Origin: an archaeon
GTDB taxonomy: Archaea; Methanobacteriota; Methanobacteria; Methanobacteriales; Methanobacteriaceae
Length of the DNA stretch: 10,882 bases
NCBI GenBank assembly: GCA_024409185.1
Contig: JAKSUD010000016.1
Location: 1-10,882, forward strand
Direction of reading: 5' to 3'
The position numbers and the translations under genes were made by a program. Numbering within the stretch: position 1 is the stretch's first letter; every line of letters starts with the position of its first letter. Below the pieces are notes generated by a model that did no database searches, was not told the origin of the DNA, and saw nothing but the letters and a program-made list of their open reading frames with translations. Positions 2,456 to 10,873 of the stretch are shown here, in pieces.

Positions 2456-2830
2456 TTATTCTTCAATATCATTATCTTTATTTAATGACTCAAATTTCTC
2501 TCTTTCAATAGCTATTTGTCTTACAAGCTCAGATATATCTTGATTCATATTATCTACTTTTACATATAATTTAAAAATAACATAAATACAAAATGCAAAA
2601 CCTAAAATAACTACAAAGTCTAAACCTCTTTGTAAACCAAAGAAATTAGCTATTGGATCAGTTAAATGAGGGAAAAATCCTATTAAAAGAACTGCAATAC
2701 AAAATAAAATCCATAAAATTAATGTAGGAATTGTGGATTGATTTTTACGAACACGATTAGCAAAAAATAAACAAGACACTATTGCAAGTAGAATAATTAT
2801 AACTTTATATAAACTTAAATGAAATATAAT
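2456..2830 (-). CDS. DUF2304 membrane protein, apparent ATT start
   Basis: A 124-residue membrane protein when read from the ATT codon at 2830. Its order is transmembrane segment 1 (LSLYKVIIILLAIVSCLFFA), a basic turn NRVRKNQ, transmembrane segment 2 (LILWILFCIAVLLIGFF), a loop PHLTDPIANFFGLQRG, transmembrane segment 3 (FVVILGFAFCIYVIFKLYV), and a charged C-terminal helix with ISELVRQIAIE. This is the DUF2304 pattern. No ATG exists in the 5' part. The first conventional codon, GTG at 2779, has no Shine-Dalgarno and would delete segment 1, whereas GGAGGG at 2843-2838 lies seven bases before the ATT. The gene follows the glycosyltransferase at 2915-3619. DUF2304 proteins often sit beside family-2 glycosyltransferases and are presumed to help transfer lipid-linked sugars at the membrane; that role is inferred. 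Confidence 0.75.
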   Translation of the reverse strand: MIFHLSLYKVIIILLAIVSCLFFANRVRKNQSTIPTLILWILFCIAVLLIGFFPHLTDPIANFFGLQRGLDFVVILGFAFCIYVIFKLYVKVDNMNQDISELVRQIAIEREKFESLNKDNDIEE

Positions 2831-2837
2831 TTTAATT

Positions 2838-2843
2838 CCCTCC
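2838..2843 (-). promoter_or_regulatory. Shine-Dalgarno placing the DUF2304 start at an ATT codon
   Basis: GGAGGG on the minus strand is a strong match to the archaeal anti-Shine-Dalgarno. The in-frame codon seven bases downstream is ATT (2830-2828), followed by ATA. No ATG, GTG or TTG falls within a usable distance. Confidence 0.7.
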
Positions 2844-2882
2844 TTTAAATTTTAAATAAATATGATTAATAAAAATGTTATA

Positions 2883-2941
2883 CTAAATAAATCTAAAAAC
2901 ATTACCTAAAAACACTAAATCCTAAATAAATCTAAAAACAT
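2883..2941. repeat. 20-bp direct repeat at the 3' end of the glycosyltransferase gene
   Basis: The 20-mer CTAAATAAATCTAAAAACAT occurs at 2883-2902 and again at 2922-2941, 39 bases apart. The second copy is coding (Met-Phe-Leu-Asp-Leu-Phe-Arg near the C-terminus of the glycosyltransferase); the first lies just after its stop codon. It looks like a local duplication of the gene end. Confidence 0.8.
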
Positions 2942-3619
2942 CTTACACATAATCTTAAATCCTACCCACATATTAGTTCCTTTATGTTGAGTATCATCTG
3001 TGTAAATGGTTGTAATTTCAACTTCTTCTAATTTAAGTTTATTATCCTTAATTTCACGAATAAACTCAGAAGATACACCATAACCTTCAGAAACAATATT
3101 AATCTTACTTGCAGCTTCTCTTGTAAAAGCTCTAAGACCAGATTGAGAGTCTTGAACATTTACTTGGTAAAATATAATTGTTAGAAGATTCATGATTTTA
3201 TTTGCACCACTTTTAGTAAAAGGCATATCTTTAAAAGGTCTTGCACCAATAACAACCTCTGCTTTACCTTCTTTTAACGGTTTACAAACTTTAGCGATAT
3301 CATTGACTTCATGTTGACCATCTGAATCAAAAGTAACCATATATTCAGCACCATGGTTTTCTGCAATAACAAGCCCTGTTTTTAATGCTGCACCTAAACC
3401 TCTATTAACAATATGAGATGCAATAAAAATCTTATCAGGATACTTTTTTTGAGATTCTTTTGCACATTTAAGAGTATTATCTTTAGATCCATCATTAACA
3501 AGAATAATATGATAGCCACGGCTAGCTACTTCTTCCATTACTTCACTAACAGTGTTTTCCTCATTATATGCAGGAATTACTAAATATACTCCTTCAGTAT
3601 CTTCTTTTAAGTTTGTCAT
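2915..3619 (-). CDS. family-2 glycosyltransferase (dolichyl-phosphate sugar transferase-like)
   Basis: A 234-residue GT-A fold glycosyltransferase of family GT2. Visible motifs are the N-terminal VYLVIPAYNEE, then IILVNDGSKDNT (nucleotide binding), HIVNRGLGAALKTG, the metal-binding DxD within TFDSDGQHE (about residues 96-104), and QSGLRAF (about 159-165), in the order seen in dolichyl-phosphate mannose/glucose synthases. It should move a sugar from a nucleotide donor to a polyprenyl phosphate or a glycan at the inner face of the membrane. It has no transmembrane segment of its own, and the neighbouring DUF2304 protein probably supplies membrane attachment. The start at 3619 has only a weak TTGAT Shine-Dalgarno. 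The sugar and acceptor cannot be determined from the sequence; roles in pseudomurein, S-layer or polysaccharide glycosylation are all possible. Confidence 0.88.
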   Translation of the reverse strand: MTNLKEDTEGVYLVIPAYNEENTVSEVMEEVASRGYHIILVNDGSKDNTLKCAKESQKKYPDKIFIASHIVNRGLGAALKTGLVIAENHGAEYMVTFDSDGQHEVNDIAKVCKPLKEGKAEVVIGARPFKDMPFTKSGANKIMNLLTIIFYQVNVQDSQSGLRAFTREAASKINIVSEGYGVSSEFIREIKDNKLKLEEVEITTIYTDDTQHKGTNMWVGFKIMCKMFLDLFRI

Positions 3620-3719
3620 ATTATCAATAGTATTTTTAAATTTAAAATTTTATTATATTGAAATTTTTATATTAAAATTTTAATTATTAATTAATTAAAA
3701 ATTAAAATAAATTATAAAT

Positions 3720-4187
<468 letters not shown>

Positions 4188-4250
4188 TCACCATTTGATT
4201 AATAATGTTTTTAGTTAATTAAATAACAATAATTATTTATGTTTAAAGTA

Positions 4251-4260
4251 TTATATAAAT
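4251..4260 (-). promoter_or_regulatory. TATA box of ribC
   Basis: ATTTATATAA on the minus strand is a good archaeal TATA element about 75 bases before the ribC ATG. Transcription from about 4230 would give a leader of roughly 45-50 bases that includes the GGTGAG site. No riboswitch-like structure is evident in that leader. Confidence 0.45.
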
Positions 4261-4264
4261 TGAA

Positions 4265-4368
4265 TTAAAAAAAGTAAACTTTTTATTAAAAAATATAAAA
4301 AATTAAAAAAATAAATTAAAAAAAGAAAAAATCTTTAAAAAATAAAATTATAAACTTTATGAAAAAAA
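4265..4368 (-). terminator. U-tract terminator region downstream of cbiO
   Basis: On the minus strand, within about 115 bases after the cbiO stop, there are repeated runs of five to seven T (for example 4368-4362) and a short AAAAAGT/ACTTTTT dyad at 4269-4284. Serial U-tracts of this kind terminate archaeal RNA polymerase without needing a hairpin. Confidence 0.45.
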
Positions 4369-4381
4369 TCTTGTAAAATAT

Positions 4382-5212
4382 TTATTTTATAAATTCAAGT
4401 ATTTTACGACGAGCTTCTCCAATTGTTAATGGATATTCTCCATTAAAATTAAAACCATCTTTTTTATCTAAAACTTCAGCTAAATGAGCTATTCTTGGTA
4501 ATCTAAGATTAGCTTCTCTTACTGTATCAACATCATAGAAAACTTCTTTTGGAGAACCTTCTTTTATAATTTCACCATCATTTATAAGGAATACTTTATT
4601 TGCATAAATTGGCACTAAATCAACATCATGAGTTGAAATTACAATAGTCATTCCTTCTTGATTAAGTTTATATAATAATTGAAGAATCTGTGAAGCACCT
4701 TTTGGATCAAGACCTGCTGTTGGTTCATCAAGGACCATAATATCAGGATTCATAGCTAAAACACCTGCAATAGCTACTCTTTTCTTTTGACCTCCACTTA
4801 AATGGTGAGGAGCTTTCTTTTCATAACCTTCCATCCCAACTGCTTTTAAAGATTCTTTTACTTTAATTTCAACTTCTTCTTGAGATAATCCTATATTCAT
4901 AGGTCCAAAAGCAACATCTTCTTCAACAGAAGGAGCAAATAGTTGATCATCAGGATTTTGGAAAACAATTCCTACTTTTTGACGAACTTCCATTAAACTT
5001 TGTTTATTATAACGGATTTTTTCACCATCAACAAATATATCTCCTTTTTGAGGTTCATTGATTCCATTAAAATGTAAGAATAAAGTAGATTTACCAGCAC
5101 CATTTTTACCTAAAAGTGCTACAATTTCGCCTTTTTCTACCTTAAAATTAATATTATTTAATGCAGTTGTTCCATCAGGATAAACATAAGTAATATTTTT
5201 TGCTTCTAAAAT
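4382..5212 (-). CDS. cbiO: energy-coupling-factor / cobalt-type ABC transporter ATP-binding protein, apparent ATT start
   Basis: A 276-residue ABC ATPase of the CbiO/EcfA family when read from the ATT at 5212. Motifs: Walker A GKNGAGKST (about 35-43), Q-loop VFQNPDDQ (about 83-90), signature LSGGQKKR (about 138-145), Walker B IMVLDEPTAGLD (about 158-169), and H-loop STHD with His about 195. It powers uptake of cobalt, nickel or a vitamin together with membrane subunits (CbiM/Q or EcfS/T), none of which lie in this window. The first ATG, at 4993, would remove residues 1-73 including Walker A and give a dead protein. The frame stays open to 5236 with no ATG, GTG or TTG. GGAGGAG at 5224-5218 lies five bases before ATT. 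The TATA box at 5259-5249 would start the message at about 5230, which also fits a start at 5212. Confidence 0.88.
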   Translation of the reverse strand: MLEAKNITYVYPDGTTALNNINFKVEKGEIVALLGKNGAGKSTLFLHFNGINEPQKGDIFVDGEKIRYNKQSLMEVRQKVGIVFQNPDDQLFAPSVEEDVAFGPMNIGLSQEEVEIKVKESLKAVGMEGYEKKAPHHLSGGQKKRVAIAGVLAMNPDIMVLDEPTAGLDPKGASQILQLLYKLNQEGMTIVISTHDVDLVPIYANKVFLINDGEIIKEGSPKEVFYDVDTVREANLRLPRIAHLAEVLDKKDGFNFNGEYPLTIGEARRKILEFIK

Positions 5213-5217
5213 AAAAT

Positions 5218-5224
5218 CTCCTCC
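5218..5224 (-). promoter_or_regulatory. Shine-Dalgarno placing the cbiO start at an ATT codon
   Basis: GGAGGAG on the minus strand is followed after five bases by ATT TTA GAA GCA, where family members normally begin Met-(Ile)-Leu-Glu-Ala. No conventional start codon occurs anywhere in frame before 4993. Confidence 0.75.
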
Positions 5225-5248
5225 AATTAAGTAATTTTATATTATTTT

Positions 5249-5259
5249 TTATATATAAA
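5249..5259 (-). promoter_or_regulatory. TATA box of cbiO
   Basis: TTTATATATAA on the minus strand is a near-ideal archaeal TATA box. Its spacing predicts transcription from about 5227-5232, just upstream of the GGAGGAG site, giving a very short leader. It shares a 141-base divergent region with the pyrF promoter. Confidence 0.55.
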
Positions 5260-5295
5260 GTTCACTAAATTATAAAAAATTAAAAAATGGTTAAT

Positions 5296-5307
5296 TATAA
5301 TATAAAT
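5296..5307 (+). promoter_or_regulatory. TATA box of pyrF
   Basis: TATAATATAAAT on the plus strand lies about 50 bases before the pyrF ATG, predicting a transcript start near 5328 and a leader of about 25 bases containing GGGATTGA. Confidence 0.45.
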
Positions 5308-5353
5308 AAAAAAACATACAAATAGAATAATAAGAAAAAATTATGGGATTGAA

Positions 5354-6001
5354 ATGGAAGTAAAAAATAATATTATATTAGCTATGGATTTAATGGATTT
5401 GAAAGAAGCAGAAAAAGTATGTGAAGATATTAAAGAATATATTGACACTATTAAAATAGGATATCCTTTAACACTTGCAGAAGGACTTTCTACAATAGGA
5501 TTCTTTAAAGATAACTTTGATTATAAAGTTATTTGTGATTATAAAGTAGCAGATATTCCAGCTACTAATGAAAAAATAGCTAATTTAACCTTTGATGCAG
5601 GTGCTGATGCAATTATTTGTCATGGATTTGTAGGTCAAGATAGTGTAAATGCATGTAAAGAATCTGCAGAAGACCATGGAAAAGATGTATTTTTACTTAC
5701 TGAAATGTCCCATCCAGGAGCAGTAAAATTCCTTCAAAAAGATGCTGATGATATTGCTAAAATGGGTGTTGAAATGGGAATTACTAACTATGTAGCTCCT
5801 TCTACAAGATTAGATAGATTAAGTGAAATTAGAGATATTGTAGGAAAAGATGCATTTATTATCTCTCCAGGTGTTGGAACTCAAGGAGGAGATCCTAAAA
5901 AAACACTTGAATTCAGTGATGGTTTAATCATTGGACGTTCTATTTATAATGCAGAAAACCCAAAAGAAGCTGTTGAAAACATCTTAAAAGATATTAAATA
6001 A
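5354..6001 (+). CDS. pyrF: orotidine 5'-phosphate decarboxylase
   Basis: A 215-residue TIM-barrel enzyme that decarboxylates OMP to UMP, the last step of de novo pyrimidine synthesis (EC 4.1.1.23). Catalytic residues are in the expected order and spacing: Asp12, Lys34, then Asp62-x-Lys64-x-x-Asp67 in CDYKVADIP. The intervals match Asp20, Lys42, Asp70, Lys72 and Asp75 of the Methanothermobacter enzyme, with a constant offset of eight. The phosphate-binding Arg195 sits in IIGRSIY near the C-terminus, and SPGVGTQGGDP forms the preceding phosphate loop. The start at 5354 is preceded by GGGATTGA. This is the only plus-strand gene in the window. It is divergent from cbiO and convergent with the DUF4143 ATPase gene, is probably monocistronic, and ends in a compact hairpin. 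Confidence 0.97.
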   Translation: MEVKNNIILAMDLMDLKEAEKVCEDIKEYIDTIKIGYPLTLAEGLSTIGFFKDNFDYKVICDYKVADIPATNEKIANLTFDAGADAIICHGFVGQDSVNACKESAEDHGKDVFLLTEMSHPGAVKFLQKDADDIAKMGVEMGITNYVAPSTRLDRLSEIRDIVGKDAFIISPGVGTQGGDPKKTLEFSDGLIIGRSIYNAENPKEAVENILKDIK

Positions 6002-6021
6002 AAGAGGATTAAATCCTCTTT
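6001..6021 (+). terminator. hairpin terminator of pyrF
   Basis: AAAGAGGAT (6001-6009) pairs perfectly with ATCCTCTTT (6013-6021) across a three-base loop, starting at the last base of the pyrF stop codon. The plus strand after it is A-rich rather than T-rich, so this may be a 3'-end-defining or stabilising hairpin as much as a terminator. Confidence 0.5.
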
Positions 6022-6042
6022 AAAATTAATATTATTAAAAAG

Positions 6043-6097
6043 TTTCCCTAAAAGAAAAAAACTTATAAAATAAAAATAATTTCCCTAAAAGAAAAAA
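6043..6097 (-). terminator. duplicated 18-bp U-tract terminator of the DUF4143 ATPase gene
   Basis: TTTCCCTAAAAGAAAAAA occurs exactly at 6043-6060 and 6080-6097, 37 bases apart. On the minus strand each reads T6-C-T4-AGGGAAA, about 14 to 68 bases after the ATPase stop codon. Together they form tandem U-tract terminators in the convergent gap with pyrF. Confidence 0.6.
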
Positions 6098-6110
6098 TTA
6101 AAAAGAAAAA

Positions 6111-7400
6111 TCACCTTAAACAACCAATAGGTAAAACTTTAACACCATCTTCCCTTGTATAAGCCACATTTGTTCCAGTTATAATAGCTAAAAATTTTGG
6201 TGGTTTAATATTTAAATTTCTAGTTTTAATACATTTTTTAATTAATTTATCTAATTTTTTCAAATTATCTGCTGCAAATTCAAATCCACTACGACCTAAT
6301 TTAAACTCAATTAATGCATATTCACCATTTTTAAGATGTAAAACACAATCAACTTCTAAACCATATCGATCTCTATAATAAGAAACTTCACCACCAAATA
6401 AACTTGAATACACCTTTAAATCTCTAAAACATAAAGTTTCAAAAATAAACCCAAATGTTTTTAAATCAAACAATAAAGAATCAGGATTCAAATTCAATGA
6501 AGCAACTGCAATAGAGGGATCTATAAACTCTCTTTTAGAACTTAATCTAATAGCAGTGGCTGAACGAATATTTGGACTCCAAGCAGAAACATTATCTATT
6601 ACAAATAAACGAGATAAAGCATTAACATAAGATTCATAAGTACTCATAGCCATATTTGGGAATAAACCATGAATATCAGCTAAAATTGTTTTATTAGTAG
6701 CAGTAGTAGAAATATTTCTACTATAAGATTGTAAAACAGATCTAACTTTTTGAGGATCTCTTTTAACATTATCAATTGCAGATACATCAATATTTACTAT
6801 ATTATCAACATAATTAGAAGCTACAAAAAGTTTAGATTCATCATCTATTTTATTTAAACTATCTGGCCATCCTCCACGACAAGCAGCAAAAACTAATTCT
6901 TCAATAGTTAAATCTGACATTATTCCATCAATGTCCATATCTGGATTTTCAAATAAATCTAAAATTGAAATTTTACCATTTGATTCTTTACTTTCATATA
7001 AACTCATAGGCCTCATAACTAATCTATGAATTCTTCCAGTTCCGGAATGCATTATTTTACTTTCATCAATAACTGTAGAACCTGTTAAAATATATAAACC
7101 TTCTTCTCTTAAATTATCCACACTTGTTCTTACAGCGTCCCATAATACTGGAATAATTTGCCATTCATCAATTAAACGAGGTTTTTCACCTTCTAAAAGT
7201 TTTGATGGTTTAAAATCTGCTAACTCTATATAAGACTTTAAATTATCTGGGTCTTGTAATTTTAAAACACTACTTGAATGTTGTTCTGCAGTTGTTGTTT
7301 TACCACACCATTTGGGACCTACAATAACAATAGAACCAACCATTTTTAAGCGTTTTTCTAAAATATCATCAACAATTCGTTTTAGATAAATTTCATTCAT
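6111..7400 (-). CDS. AAA_14/DUF4143 family ATPase
   Basis: A 429-residue P-loop ATPase with Walker A GPKWCGKTT (about 28-36), Walker B-like RLIDEWQ (about 75-81), and a LYILTGS sensor-like strand (about 102-108). A DUF4143 C-terminal domain carries GFIFETLCFRDLKVYS and, near the end, Glu349-Val-Asp351 followed by Glu365-Phe-Lys367-Leu-Gly. The last motif resembles the D...ExK core of PD-(D/E)xK nucleases. The family is widespread in prokaryotes and its biological role is poorly known. I chose the ATG at 7400, with AGGATG eight to twelve bases upstream. An ATG at 7409 or a TTG at 7427 would add 3 or 9 residues. It appears to be a single-gene unit preceded by an unusual 23-bp tandem array that could be its promoter or operator region. 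It is probably accessory; defence, DNA-linked or stress roles are speculative. Confidence 0.85.
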   Translation of the reverse strand: MNEIYLKRIVDDILEKRLKMVGSIVIVGPKWCGKTTTAEQHSSSVLKLQDPDNLKSYIELADFKPSKLLEGEKPRLIDEWQIIPVLWDAVRTSVDNLREEGLYILTGSTVIDESKIMHSGTGRIHRLVMRPMSLYESKESNGKISILDLFENPDMDIDGIMSDLTIEELVFAACRGGWPDSLNKIDDESKLFVASNYVDNIVNIDVSAIDNVKRDPQKVRSVLQSYSRNISTTATNKTILADIHGLFPNMAMSTYESYVNALSRLFVIDNVSAWSPNIRSATAIRLSSKREFIDPSIAVASLNLNPDSLLFDLKTFGFIFETLCFRDLKVYSSLFGGEVSYYRDRYGLEVDCVLHLKNGEYALIEFKLGRSGFEFAADNLKKLDKLIKKCIKTRNLNIKPPKFLAIITGTNVAYTREDGVKVLPIGCLR

Positions 7401-7449
7401 AAAAAACATCCTTTTTAACCAATACAAAAAACATTAATAATTTATAATT

Positions 7450-7564
7450 ATAATTTGTGGTAATTCATACTTATAATTTGTGATAATTTACACTTACAAT
7501 TTGTGGTAATTCATACTTATAATTTGTGATAATTTACAAATATAATTTGGAATAATTAATAAGT
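7450..7564. repeat. 23-bp tandem repeat array upstream of the DUF4143 ATPase gene
   Basis: Five head-to-tail units of exactly 23 bases at 7450-7472, 7473-7495, 7496-7518, 7519-7541 and a degenerate fifth at 7542-7564. Each begins with A-(T/C)-AATTTG. Two subtypes alternate: units 1 and 3 read TGTGGTAATTCATACTT, and units 2 and 4 read TGTGATAATTTACA. The true higher-order period is thus 46 bases. On the minus strand each unit contains an AAATTATAAG-like TATA element and a CACAAATTAT core. The array ends about 50 bases before the ATPase start and follows the adhesin terminator region. There are no unique spacers, so it is not CRISPR. Confidence 0.9.
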
Positions 7565-7646
7565 AAATTTAAAATATTCTAAAATAAAAAAAGAATTAAA
7601 TTAAATAAATAAAATTAAAAAATAAAAGTAAAAAACATATTTTAAC
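7565..7646 (-). terminator. U-rich terminator region after the adhesin-like gene
   Basis: On the minus strand, starting about ten bases after the TAA, come repeated T5-T7 runs between 7636 and 7585 in otherwise A/T sequence. This is the archaeal U-tract type; no clear hairpin is seen. Confidence 0.4.
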
Positions 7647-9090
7647 TTATATTTTACGTTTTAAAATTGGTAAAGATAATAATGAAATTATTAATAAAAA
7701 TAAAGAACTGCCTGTATTTTCCATAGAAATACCATTACATTCTAATTTTAAATTAGTTTTTGTACTATTACTTTCATTATTTTCAATCAAAGATTTAATT
7801 AAAAGAGAGCTTTCTTCTAAACCAGTAATAGGACTTTTAGCTACAATATTCAAATATAAGGAATCTACTTTTACAACAAATTGGGCTATACCATCAAATG
7901 GTATTGTTAAAAGAATAGGTTTTTTATTATTAATACGAATACTTGTAGTATAATCAGGTAAAATACCTTCCATTTCCACGTACTCTTTACCATCAGTAAG
8001 AGTGTCTAAAGCAACAGAAAATTTAGCATTTTTTCCATAAATCACTTCAGAATCATTAAAAATACTCATTAAAACCCAGGAATTAGGAGCATAAGATACT
8101 TCAAACATTGTCCCATTATCATATGTATCATAATAAGTTACAAATTTATATTTTTTAAATTCACGAGCAGTACTTGCATTTACAGCCCAGTAATCCTTAT
8201 TTAAACTTACATCCACATCTTTTCCTTTAGTAAAAGTATTACCTATTTCAGCTTTATTTCCATCAAATATTGAATTCTCTACAGTCCCATTAGGGGAACG
8301 CCATAATATAGCACCACCCATATCAGCACTATTATTAATAAAACTACACATATAAACCATACCATTAGGAGTACCCCAATTAATAGCACCTCCAAGACTT
8401 CCAAAGTTATTTATAAAAGTACATCCTAAAATAGAGTCATTTTCACCATTATTTAATGTAATACCTCCACCAGTATAACCTGCATGATTATCAATAAAAT
8501 TAGATCCAACTACATATAAATTAGAAGCATTACCAAAAATTCCAGGTGCACAATTTATAGCAGTATTATTAATAAAATTTGAATAAAAAACAGAGGTATT
8601 TTCAGCATTTACATAAATAGAAACACCATAAGTAGCATGATTATTCTTAAAATTAGAATTTACAACAGTACCGTCAATTCCTTCAAAGAAGACACCTGCA
8701 CCCCATGTAGAGTTACAATTTGTAAAATTACAATCTTCAATATAAGTACTTTTTCCAGAGGTATAAATAGCTCCACCACGAACTCCATTAGCATTAATAA
8801 AATTAATATTATTAAATTTAACATTACTAGAAGATACATTAAAAATAGAGGATAAATTATTTCCATCAAGTGGTTGAATTTTTACCTACAAATTTTAATC
8901 CACTCTTATTTACATGAATAACTTCACCATTACTTGTATAATTTCCATTAAGTTCAATTGTATCATTTTCATTAGCATTATCAACTGCATCTTAAATTTC
9001 TGTAAAATCAGTTGCACTTGATATAGAAATCGCTGAAAATAGAATAAACAGAATTAATAAAAATGATAAAATATATTTTGTATTAAAAAT
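7647..9090 (-). pseudogene. broken adhesin-like beta-helix surface protein
   Basis: The reading frame is recoverable as one protein of about 480 residues but is interrupted twice. It begins at an ATT after GGAGGA (9102-9097) with a signal peptide (FNTKYILSFLLILFILFSA, ending ISSA). It then hits TAA at 8994-8992, where related proteins have a sense codon (E-I-x-DAVDNANENDTIEL; CAA to TAA is likely). The frame continues to TGA at 8868-8866. A single extra base near 8868 moves it into the frame that runs open to the TAA at 7649-7647. The body carries polymorphic-repeat motifs (FxN and GGAI, for example CTFINN...LGGAI and CSFINN...MGGAI) typical of parallel beta-helix adhesins. The C-terminus is MENTGSS, a hydrophobic anchor and KRK, as in Methanobrevibacter adhesin-like proteins. 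An intact fragment of about 410 codons lies downstream of the frameshift but has no signal peptide. Confidence 0.85.
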
Positions 9091-9096
9091 ATTAAA

Positions 9097-9102
9097 TCCT
9101 CC
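9097..9102 (-). promoter_or_regulatory. Shine-Dalgarno of the adhesin-like gene, followed by ATT
   Basis: GGAGGA, six bases, then ATT TTT AAT ACA AAA TAT, where a Met-Phe-Asn-Thr-Lys-Tyr signal peptide start would be expected. The only conventional in-frame codon is TTG at 9117, upstream of the Shine-Dalgarno itself and hence implausible. Confidence 0.65.
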
Positions 9103-9122
9103 ACATATATTATACAATAAAA

Positions 9123-10109
9123 TTATTTATGATTTAAATAAAAATCAAATCCAAGTTCTTTTGAATGAGAAAGTTCATTAAGAGTTTTAAGAATAAAAAT
9201 ATTAAGTTCTTCTTCATCTTCTATTTTTTCAAAATCTTCAAAATATTTAGAGTAATCTGGATGATTTTTATATTTATTAATCAAATCATCATATTTAACT
9301 AATAATTCTTGTAATTTATCATCATTTTTAATTTCTTTGATAAGATCAGGATTATTAGCTAAAATACTTGTTATTCCATCAATATAAGCTTTATCTATCT
9401 TATTTTTAAATATGAAATATTTATTATCTTCTACCAAATTTGTAAAAATTAAATTATTAATAATTTTTAAGATTAATGATTTAAATAATATCAAGATATA
9501 GATAAAATTACTAAATAATGGAAACTTAAAAGATATTAAAAGTGCTATAAAAGCTATAATTGGATAAAATATAATATTTAAAAGGTTTTTATTAAAATTA
9601 TAGTTTTTAAGAAACAAATCTTTAAAACGATCAATTCCAGTTTCCTCACTATTTTGAATTTGCATATTCATTTTATAGATATAATACCACTGAATAACCA
9701 TCAATAATCCAATAGCTATTTGATTTAAATGAAAAATATAAGCAAAAATAGGAAATTCCATAGCAAAATTTAAAATTAATGATAATGAAATTGGAATTAA
9801 AACAGCAAACATTAAGATAATTAAAGTTAACCACATTAATTTCTCATTAGTTTGCTCAATAGATTCTATAAGATAACGCTCACTAATCCAAATGGACCCA
9901 AGAATAATAAAAGATAAAGCAAAAAGAACAACTTCATAAGTTAATGAATGTAAATATCCTTGAAGTAATATAGGGCTTAATTCTCCTTTATCTGGAATAA
10001 AAATAATTAAAGCTAACATTGTCATAGCTACTGCAAATATTCCATCTGTAATTGCTCTTAATGCATCTGCTGAAATTAAAAAAGTGTTATTATTATCAAA
10101 TATTCTCAT
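9123..10109 (-). CDS. TMEM175-like (DUF1211) integral membrane protein, putative potassium channel
   Basis: A 328-residue membrane protein. The N-terminal 220 residues hold six predicted transmembrane segments (about 15-38, 55-77, 91-115, 121-145, 176-194, 199-217), as in single-repeat prokaryotic TMEM175 proteins. Segment 1 contains ALRAITDGIFAVAMTMLAL, matching the family signature RxxxFSDGVFAIAxTLL, except that the Phe-Ser of FSD is Ile-Thr here (Arg18 and Asp22 kept). Characterised bacterial and human members are potassium-permeable channels; that activity is inferred here. A C-terminal cytosolic tail of about 108 residues, rich in Lys, Glu and Asp, is longer than in typical family members. 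The start at 10109 has no Shine-Dalgarno, and a TATA-like element about 27 bases upstream suggests a leaderless message. The broken adhesin gene begins only 32 bases after its stop. Confidence 0.78.
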   Translation of the reverse strand: MRIFDNNNTFLISADALRAITDGIFAVAMTMLALIIFIPDKGELSPILLQGYLHSLTYEVVLFALSFIILGSIWISERYLIESIEQTNEKLMWLTLIILMFAVLIPISLSLILNFAMEFPIFAYIFHLNQIAIGLLMVIQWYYIYKMNMQIQNSEETGIDRFKDLFLKNYNFNKNLLNIIFYPIIAFIALLISFKFPLFSNFIYILILFKSLILKIINNLIFTNLVEDNKYFIFKNKIDKAYIDGITSILANNPDLIKEIKNDDKLQELLVKYDDLINKYKNHPDYSKYFEDFEKIEDEEELNIFILKTLNELSHSKELGFDFYLNHK

Positions 10110-10132
10110 ATTTAGTTATATAATTTATAAAA

Positions 10133-10244: not shown

Positions 10245-10873
10245 TTAACCTTTGATTGAATCAATCTCAGCATCAATAAGAAGTATATTTCCATAAACTT
10301 CAAACATTACTTTGTCTGCAGATATAACACAATTTATAGCCCTAACATAGTCACCTTCAAAAAATTTTTCATCAGCTAACTCCATATAATGGTCAGCAAC
10401 TTTTAACCTATTAAAATATGGACTCAAATCTCCAGGAGCCAATTTCTTCTTATTAATACATTTATTCATTAATTCTTTAAGATCAGAAAGTTTACTTTTA
10501 GTTTCTGATATTTTATTTTCTGCTTCATTTTTAGAAGGAGTATTTTCTGTTTTAATTGAATTTTTAATATTTTGTGGATTCTTTGGAACTTTTAAATCAT
10601 TAACAGCAGTAGCTCCTAAATTAATTGATATTTTAGCAAATTCATTCATTTTTACAGAAGATGAAGGTGAATTAACAGAATTCTTATTAGGATCAACTTT
10701 TTTATCCATTGAATTATCTACTTGTTCTATTTCATTTCAGAAGATACTGGTTTAACATCATCTTGAACTTCCTTAACATCATCATTTGTATCAGAATCAA
10801 GTGCATAAGCACAAGGAACAGATAATAACATCACAGTAATAAACAGAACACAAAATAACTTTTTAATATTCAT
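10245..10873 (-). pseudogene. secreted protein of unknown function interrupted by a -1 frameshift
   Basis: The 5' part starts at ATG 10873 after GGTGAT (10882-10877). It encodes a signal peptide (MNIKKLFCVLFITVMLLSV, ending CAYA) and an acidic segment (DSDTNDDVKEVQDDVKPVSSE), then stops at TAG 10729-10727 after 48 codons. The rest is in the -1 frame, open after a TGA at 10739-10737 and running to TAA at 10247. Joining them needs one extra base, or a slip back by one, within about 10738-10727; GAAATG from GAAAATG is the simplest reading. The repaired product is about 209 residues: signal peptide, low-complexity Asn/Ser/Lys linker, and a C-terminal helical domain (about 130-209, with PYFNRLKVADHYMELADEKF) that I do not recognise. 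Mutation, sequence error and programmed frameshifting cannot be told apart here. Annotation from the internal ATG at 10709 would miss the export signal. Confidence 0.75.

What the first reader, a model, noticed from the sequence alone, without database searches (positions are those of the whole stretch)
2828..9102. Three genes in one window have a strong Shine-Dalgarno followed by ATT instead of ATG
Seen directly: GGAGGG-7nt-ATT (DUF2304, 2830), GGAGGAG-5nt-ATT (cbiO, 5212) and GGAGGA-6nt-ATT (adhesin-like, 9090). In each, the homologous protein N-terminus begins at that codon and no usable ATG, GTG or TTG exists. Neighbouring genes (LUD protein, ribC, pyrF) use ATG. AUU initiation is known for E. 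coli infC, where it serves IF3-dependent autoregulation, but is rarely considered in archaea. Three cases in 10 kb suggest that this lineage tolerates or uses AUU starts, perhaps as a class of down-tuned or initiation-factor-sensitive genes with compensating strong Shine-Dalgarnos. One of the three genes is otherwise broken, which weakens that case.
Basis: partly seen in the sequence, partly recalled or inferred. Interest (0 to 1): 0.72.

Follow-up and report, generated by a model that had tools for sequence, protein, structure and literature searches.

The report
Conserved AUU start codons in methanogens
Some genes of rumen methanogens and their relatives appear to begin with AUU (or AUA, AUC, CUG) instead of the usual AUG, the unusual start is kept across many species, and some deposited proteins lack their front end because of it.

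Summary
The three SD-ATT sites exist exactly where stated, in a Methanobrevibacter MAG. Two are well-supported starts. cbiO: the 14 congeners (of 19) with a full-length orthologue all have ATT at the same codon; in the window the next in-frame ATG/GTG/TTG lies past Walker A. DUF2304: ATT in 17 of 17 congeners with the gene; one more distant relative has ATG in that column. The adhesin-like gene is broken and matched no other congener, so it is untestable. The motif alone is not enriched genome-wide (149 hits; reversed control 177). The phenomenon is wider. A glycerophosphotransferase gene has ATT in 4 and GTG/TTG/ATG in 11 of 15 congeners at the same column. A TatD-like gene has ATT/ATA in 12 and ATG in 18 of 30 genomes read. 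CTP synthase has CTG in 44 of 50 genomes read across the order, four with a stop codon directly before it. In sampled stretches of two congeners roughly 2% of conserved genes have a near-cognate start in at least one genome. The initiator tRNA looks ordinary; aIF1 starts with ATG. Best reading: SD-anchored initiation by ordinary Met-tRNAi at near-cognate codons in Methanobacteriales. Regulation is possible but unshown.

The parts
5210..5212 (-). AUU start codon of cbiO
   Evidence: ATT in 14 of 14 congeneric orthologues and 4 of 4 in genus g6 at the same column
5220..5224 (-). Shine-Dalgarno GGAGG of cbiO, 7 nt before the ATT
   Evidence: exact GGAGG-N7 in 16 of 20 orthologues of g1, g6 and g3
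4385..5212 (-). cbiO, energy-coupling-factor type ATPase, 276 codons from the ATT
   Evidence: Pfam ABC_tran; alignment with the solved CbiO 3gfo starts at the ATT-coded residue in the M. ruminantium orthologue
2828..2830 (-). AUU start codon of the DUF2304 gene
   Evidence: ATT in 17 of 17 congeners at this column; ATG there in G091
2838..2843 (-). Shine-Dalgarno GGAGGG of the DUF2304 gene
   Evidence: congeners mostly have GGAAGTG-like sites at the equivalent place
2459..2830 (-). DUF2304 gene, 124 codons from the ATT
   Evidence: Pfam DUF2304
9088..9090 (-). candidate AUU start of a broken adhesin-like gene
   Evidence: GGAGGA-N6-ATT followed by a signal-peptide-like stretch, 32 codons to a stop; no congeneric orthologue found
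9097..9102 (-). Shine-Dalgarno GGAGGA of the adhesin-like gene
7647..8885 (-). long open piece of the adhesin-like gene, in another frame than the candidate start
   Evidence: Pfam Beta_helix

Best explanation
cbiO and the DUF2304 gene are translated from AUU. A Shine-Dalgarno sequence at the spacing usual for AUG genes docks the 30S subunit, and the ordinary initiator Met-tRNA (anticodon CAU) pairs with the first two bases of AUU and tolerates the mismatch at the third. The same tolerance is used at low frequency, and stably over evolution, at AUU, AUA, AUC and CUG in several genera of Methanobacteriales. Shown by sequence: column-exact conservation, exchange with AUG/GUG/UUG in the same column, absence of another in-frame canonical start in many genomes, and an ordinary initiator tRNA. 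Inferred: that Met is inserted, that initiation is weaker than at AUG, and that SD strength compensates.
For: cbiO: ATT in 14 of 14 g1 and 4 of 4 g6 orthologues, ATT/ATA in two of g3; 18 of 20 without any canonical codon back to the upstream stop; exact GGAGG-N7 in 16 of 20. The column is ATT in 18 of 18 while 1 of 10 other invariant Ile columns uses a single codon. DUF2304: ATT in 17 of 17 congeners, ATG in that column in G091. GPT-like gene: ATT 4, GTG 9, TTG 1, ATG 1 of 15 in one column. TatD-like gene: ATG 18, ATA 9, ATT 3 of 30 read. CTP synthase: CTG 44, TTG 4, ATG 2 of 50 read, four with a stop directly before CTG. SD-only calls, blind to the codon, land on a near-cognate in 7 of 7 genes judged real, background 0.138. 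Spacing in ATG genes peaks at 7 (40 of 67 with a clear SD). Ordinary tRNA-Met CAU in 7 genomes.
Against: The SD-ATT motif is not enriched genome-wide. Ile or another hydrophobic residue at the cbiO column is also found where the protein starts upstream, so part of its conservation could be protein-level. 4 of 17 DUF2304 genes, 22 of 44 CTG-type pyrG genes and 4 of 12 ATT/ATA-type TatD genes have some canonical codon in frame upstream. A pair of g9 genomes showed no case in 75 orthologue pairs. Which flagged pairs are real genes was my judgement. No protein-level evidence was seen.
Confidence: 0.88

Rival explanations
1. The unusual starts are regulatory: kept weak so that output stays low or responds to initiation-factor activity, like infC in E. 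coli.
For: ATT is fixed in cbiO of two genera and CTG persists in CTP synthase through most of the order.
Against: The genes have no common function; aIF1 itself starts with ATG; in the GPT-like and TatD-like genes the column swaps between ATT/ATA and GTG/ATG.
Confidence: 0.2
2. The proteins start elsewhere, at an upstream or downstream canonical codon, and the conserved ATT is an inner Ile codon or leader sequence.
For: Some pyrG, TatD and DUF2304 genes have an in-frame canonical codon upstream, and databases use such codons in some records (P0149, P0160).
Against: 18 of 20 cbiO, 13 of 17 DUF2304 and 4 of 4 ATT-type GPT-like genes have none. Downstream starts would remove conserved sequence: Walker A in the window cbiO, the P-loop of CTP synthase. 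In GPT-like and TatD-like genes the column is ATG/GTG/TTG in orthologues.
Confidence: 0.06
3. Assembly or base-calling errors in a MAG.
For: The window comes from a fragmented MAG and holds at least one broken gene.
Against: The same codons stand in 13 other assemblies for cbiO, among them G003, a single contig of 2,937,203 bases matching M. ruminantium M1.
Confidence: 0.02
4. A dedicated second initiator tRNA reads AUU, AUA and AUC.
For: All three codons occur as apparent starts.
Against: Exact matches to an initiator-type arm with any base at position 34 gave only C34 in 7 genomes; the one fetched per genome is tRNA-Met CAU. CTG starts would not be explained. tRNAs unlike that arm were not searched.
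Confidence: 0.03

Closest known systems
AUU start of infC (IF3) and of pcnB in E. coli (recalled; infC papers seen only in the reference list of PMC9845219)
   Same: AUU as the start of a conserved gene in an SD-using cell
   Different: There one or two genes, with autoregulation by IF3; here several unrelated genes, in archaea that use aIF1 instead of IF3, and aIF1 itself starts with ATG
Rare start-codon switches to AUU or CUG in bacteria and archaea (PMC5622118, passages)
   Same: Non-AUG/GUG/UUG starts seen by genome comparison
   Different: There 1 of 61,358 ancestral AUG starts switched to AUU; here about 2% of sampled conserved genes have a near-cognate start in at least one of two species, a different measure, so the contrast is only indicative
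Non-AUG starts of chloroplast genes (PMC9845219, passages)
   Same: SD-assisted initiation at stable non-AUG codons
   Different: Bacterial-type organelle ribosome; mainly GUG and similar

Membership tests
Near-cognate translation start | Codon at the SD-set start position differs from AUG by one base | tested here: met
Near-cognate translation start | Same column is AUG (or GUG/UUG) in orthologues | tested here: met
   DUF2304 in G091, GPT-like and TatD-like, pyrG. For cbiO only homologues that may be a paralogous clade show ATG/GTG in the column
Near-cognate translation start | No canonical in-frame alternative | tested here: met
   18 of 20 cbiO, 13 of 17 DUF2304 (one of them has ATG at the next codon); window genes cbiO and DUF2304. 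Not met for the adhesin-like gene (TTG upstream)
Near-cognate translation start | Met at the protein N-terminus | not testable with these tools
   needs mass spectrometry
infC-type autoregulated AUU start | The gene encodes an initiation factor | tested here: not met
   cbiO and DUF2304 are an ABC ATPase and a membrane protein family of unknown function; aIF1 starts with ATG
infC-type autoregulated AUU start | Expression responds to initiation-factor level | not testable with these tools
   needs an experiment

The most novel reading that the evidence does not exclude
Methanobacteriales have a constitutively relaxed start-codon check (in aIF1/aIF1A, the ribosome or its rRNA modification), so that near-cognate starts are an ordinary, heritable way to set expression: about 2% of genes in the M. 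ruminantium clade, and a CTP synthase started with CUG through most of the order.
Probability: 0.3. Interest if true: 0.8.

Novelty: new variant of a known kind. Interest (0 to 1): 0.62.

Why it matters
Near-cognate starts in prokaryotes are usually treated as rare exceptions. Here they are conserved between genera of an archaeal order, including in CTP synthase, a central biosynthetic enzyme. That makes start-codon fidelity in archaea directly testable in culturable methanogens. It also explains deposited proteins without their N-termini: CbiO2 of M. ruminantium M1 (253 aa) and a CTP synthase cluster of 338 sequences that lacks the P-loop. Gene finders limited to ATG/GTG/TTG will repeat this.

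Tried and rejected
Motif counting alone: no enrichment. A special initiator tRNA: no support. aIF1 itself with AUU: not so (a first pattern for it found nothing). Orthologues of the adhesin-like gene: none at E<=1e-30. A g9 pair (G045/G046, 200 kb each): 2 flagged of 75 pairs, both judged antisense, so none found. A g19 pair (G147/G149, 200 kb each): 37 flagged of 237 pairs; I judged most to be antisense, frameshifted, repeat or ordinary ATG cases and kept two (TatD-like; an ATG/ATC pair). In the main census 5 of 12 flagged pairs were dropped as antisense, non-coding or frameshifted; blind SD calls on these gave 0 near-cognates of 10. In the second census 4 of 5 flagged were dropped: two ordinary (TTG, ATG), one frameshifted, one unclear. 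Literature: searches listed no report of near-cognate starts in Methanobacteriales. Several lists were capped (25 of 8,243; 20 of 793; 25 of 49; 20 of 37), I saw titles and starts of abstracts, plus passages of eight papers, and the library lacks most subscription journals. So absence from print is not established.
Full report
OBSERVATION. The three sites are as described on the minus strand: ATT at 2828-2830, 5210-5212 and 9088-9090, each after GGAGG. The window is contig C68 of a MAG of 1.22 Mb in 261 contigs, 64% complete. By motif alone the finding is nothing special: GGAGGN{5,9}ATT occurs 149 times in the MAG and the reversed control 177 times. For DUF2304 and cbiO no ATG, GTG or TTG lies in frame between the upstream stop and the ATT; the next are at +17 and +73 codons. 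The adhesin-like site has an in-frame TTG nine codons upstream, and its frame stops after 32 codons.

cbiO. 14 of 19 congeneric genomes (own included) hold a full-length orthologue. The other five were left out: G004 and G017 have a fragment or a copy with stops, G005, G006 and G010 only more distant relatives. The 14 all read ATT-TTA-(G/A)A at the same column. Genus g6 has ATT in 4 of 4; in g3 one has ATT and one ATA. Exact GGAGG-N7 stands before 16 of these 20, and a G-rich variant before the other 4. 18 of 20 have no canonical codon back to the upstream stop. In most other genera read, the protein has ATG two codons earlier (MNIIEAK type); homologues in g9, which may be a paralogous clade, have ATG or GTG in this very column. 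I infer that the older ATG was lost and the SD moved with the start. Across the 18 sequences of g1 and g6 the start column is ATT in all, while 1 of 10 other invariant Ile columns uses a single codon. The next canonical codon lies at +15 to +73; in the window it lies beyond Walker A, which is at residue 39. The alignment of the M. ruminantium protein with the solved CbiO 3gfo begins at the ATT-coded residue.

DUF2304. 17 of 19 genomes have the gene. In 9 of the 12 genomes with both full-length genes it lies on the same contig within 6 kb of cbiO (coordinates). The column is ATT in 17 of 17. 13 have no canonical codon back to the stop, one of which (G010) has ATG as the next codon; 4 have an ATG or TTG 5 to 12 codons upstream. 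In g9, G091 has ATG in this column where G052 and G089 have ATT. In several other genera a downstream ATG with its own SD may be the start, so I claim the ATT start for g1 and a few relatives only.

THIRD GENE. The long piece of the adhesin-like gene matches no other congener at E<=1e-30. Secreted-type genes with ATA (A_+_206260, both species, Ig-like domains) and ATT (L421:11589 and L430:8488, both species) make an AUU start there plausible, no more.

CENSUS. I compared 400 kb of G016 with 400 kb of G003, both chosen around cbiO. Of 180 non-overlapping pairs, 12 had conservation beginning more than 12 codons before the first canonical codon in at least one genome. I judged 7 real and dropped 5. 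The 7: cbiO ATT/ATT; DUF2304 ATT/ATT; CTP synthase CTG/CTG; a CDP-glycerol glycerophosphotransferase family gene ATT/ATT (Pfam Glyphos_transf); the secreted-type gene ATA/ATA; one with ATT in G016 against ATG two codons away in G003; one with ATC in G003 against ATG in G016. Choosing the start by SD alone, blind to the codon, gives a near-cognate in 7 of 7 genes (genome with the better SD; on a tie both agree) and in 10 of 11 calls in the flagged genomes (the other was GTT), against a background of 0.138 and 0 of 10 in the dropped pairs (P(7/7)=9e-7, P(>=6/7)=4e-5). For one call in DUF2304 of G003 the SD picked the ATT one codon earlier. A second pair of 200 kb stretches, chosen next to aIF1, gave 75 pairs, 5 flagged, 1 kept, ATT in both. 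Leaving out cbiO and DUF2304, which led me there, this is 6 of about 246 conserved genes, roughly 2%; the denominator is approximate because some pairs may be antisense ORFs. For comparison PMC5622118 reports 1 of 61,358 ancestral AUG starts switched to AUU (passage), a different measure.

ORDER-WIDE. CTP synthase: 136 of 150 genomes have a match; I read 50: CTG 44, TTG 4, ATG 2. 22 of the 44 have no canonical codon back to the stop; in L271, L278, L284 and L301 the stop directly precedes the CTG. The other 22 have an ATG, GTG or TTG in frame upstream, in some of them overlapping the SD, and some database records use it (P0149, P0160). Pfam's CTP_synth_N begins two residues after the CTG codon. 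GPT-like gene: 15 of 19 congeners have a match, GTG 9, ATT 4, TTG 1, ATG 1 in one column. TatD-like gene: 135 of 150 genomes have a match and I read the 30 fetched: ATG 18, ATA 9, ATT 3, the last two only in g18 and g19; 8 of these 12 have no canonical codon upstream. Pfam's TatD profile begins one residue after this codon. G147, by its length of 1,751,377 bases Methanothermobacter thermautotrophicus delta H (recalled), has ATT in the TatD-like gene, with an in-frame ATG 5 codons upstream, and CTG in pyrG, with an in-frame TTG 3 codons upstream. A g9 pair showed none in 75 pairs, so the frequency differs between genera or samples.

MECHANISM. In aligned ATG/ATG genes with a clear SD the spacing from GGAGG peaks at 7 (40 of 67; 191 of 258 gene copies had no SD by this strict rule), as in cbiO. 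The initiator tRNA fetched from each of 7 genomes is an ordinary tRNA-Met with CAU (G147 has a second exact arm match that I did not fetch). aIF1 was found in 10 of 19 congeners and starts with ATG in the 9 whole copies. So I infer SD-anchored initiation by ordinary Met-tRNAi with one mismatched base. Published work describes discrimination against non-canonical starts by aIF1 (PMC6237735, passages), and more protein from non-AUG genes when KsgA/Dim1 is missing in H. volcanii and E. coli (PMC7897474, passages); neither was tested here.

ANNOTATION. CbiO2 of M. ruminantium M1 is deposited with 253 aa, beginning just before Walker A (P0001). An NCBI record whose contig length equals that of G014:C35 begins MLEARDIV, that is, at the ATT (P0002). 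A CTP synthase cluster of 338 sequences (P0126) lacks the P-loop, while P0121 begins MTKYIII at the CTG position. So some records already place starts at ATT and CTG.

VERDICT. Two of the three starts are well supported and conserved; the third is open. The phenomenon belongs to the known kind of near-cognate initiation. Its breadth, conservation and archaeal setting are what is new to me; searches are listed under Tried and rejected.

Noticed in passing
L254-L303 (pyrG loci across Methanobacteriales): CTP synthase starts with CTG in 44 of 50 genomes read, four of them with a stop codon directly before it.
   Followed up: yes
L383-L392, L394, L395: TatD-like gene with ATA or ATT in the column where other genera have ATG.
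   Followed up: partly
L332 around 17836 and L342 around 17029 (G147 and G149): A secreted-type protein has ATG in one genome and ATC in the other after nearly the same GGAGGTGAAAA leader.
   Followed up: no
window 8885-9090: The adhesin-like gene is interrupted: its front piece stops at 8994 and the long piece lies in another frame.
   Followed up: partly
window 10245-10736: An ORF without a start at its front end, next to a signal-peptide-like stretch in another frame; this gene also seems interrupted (read by eye).
   Followed up: no
window 7437-7561: Tandem array with a 23-base unit, 5.4 copies (46-base unit at 91% match), upstream of the AAA/DUF4143 gene.
   Followed up: no
window 9123-10115: TMEM175-type potassium channel family protein in an archaeon.
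   Followed up: no
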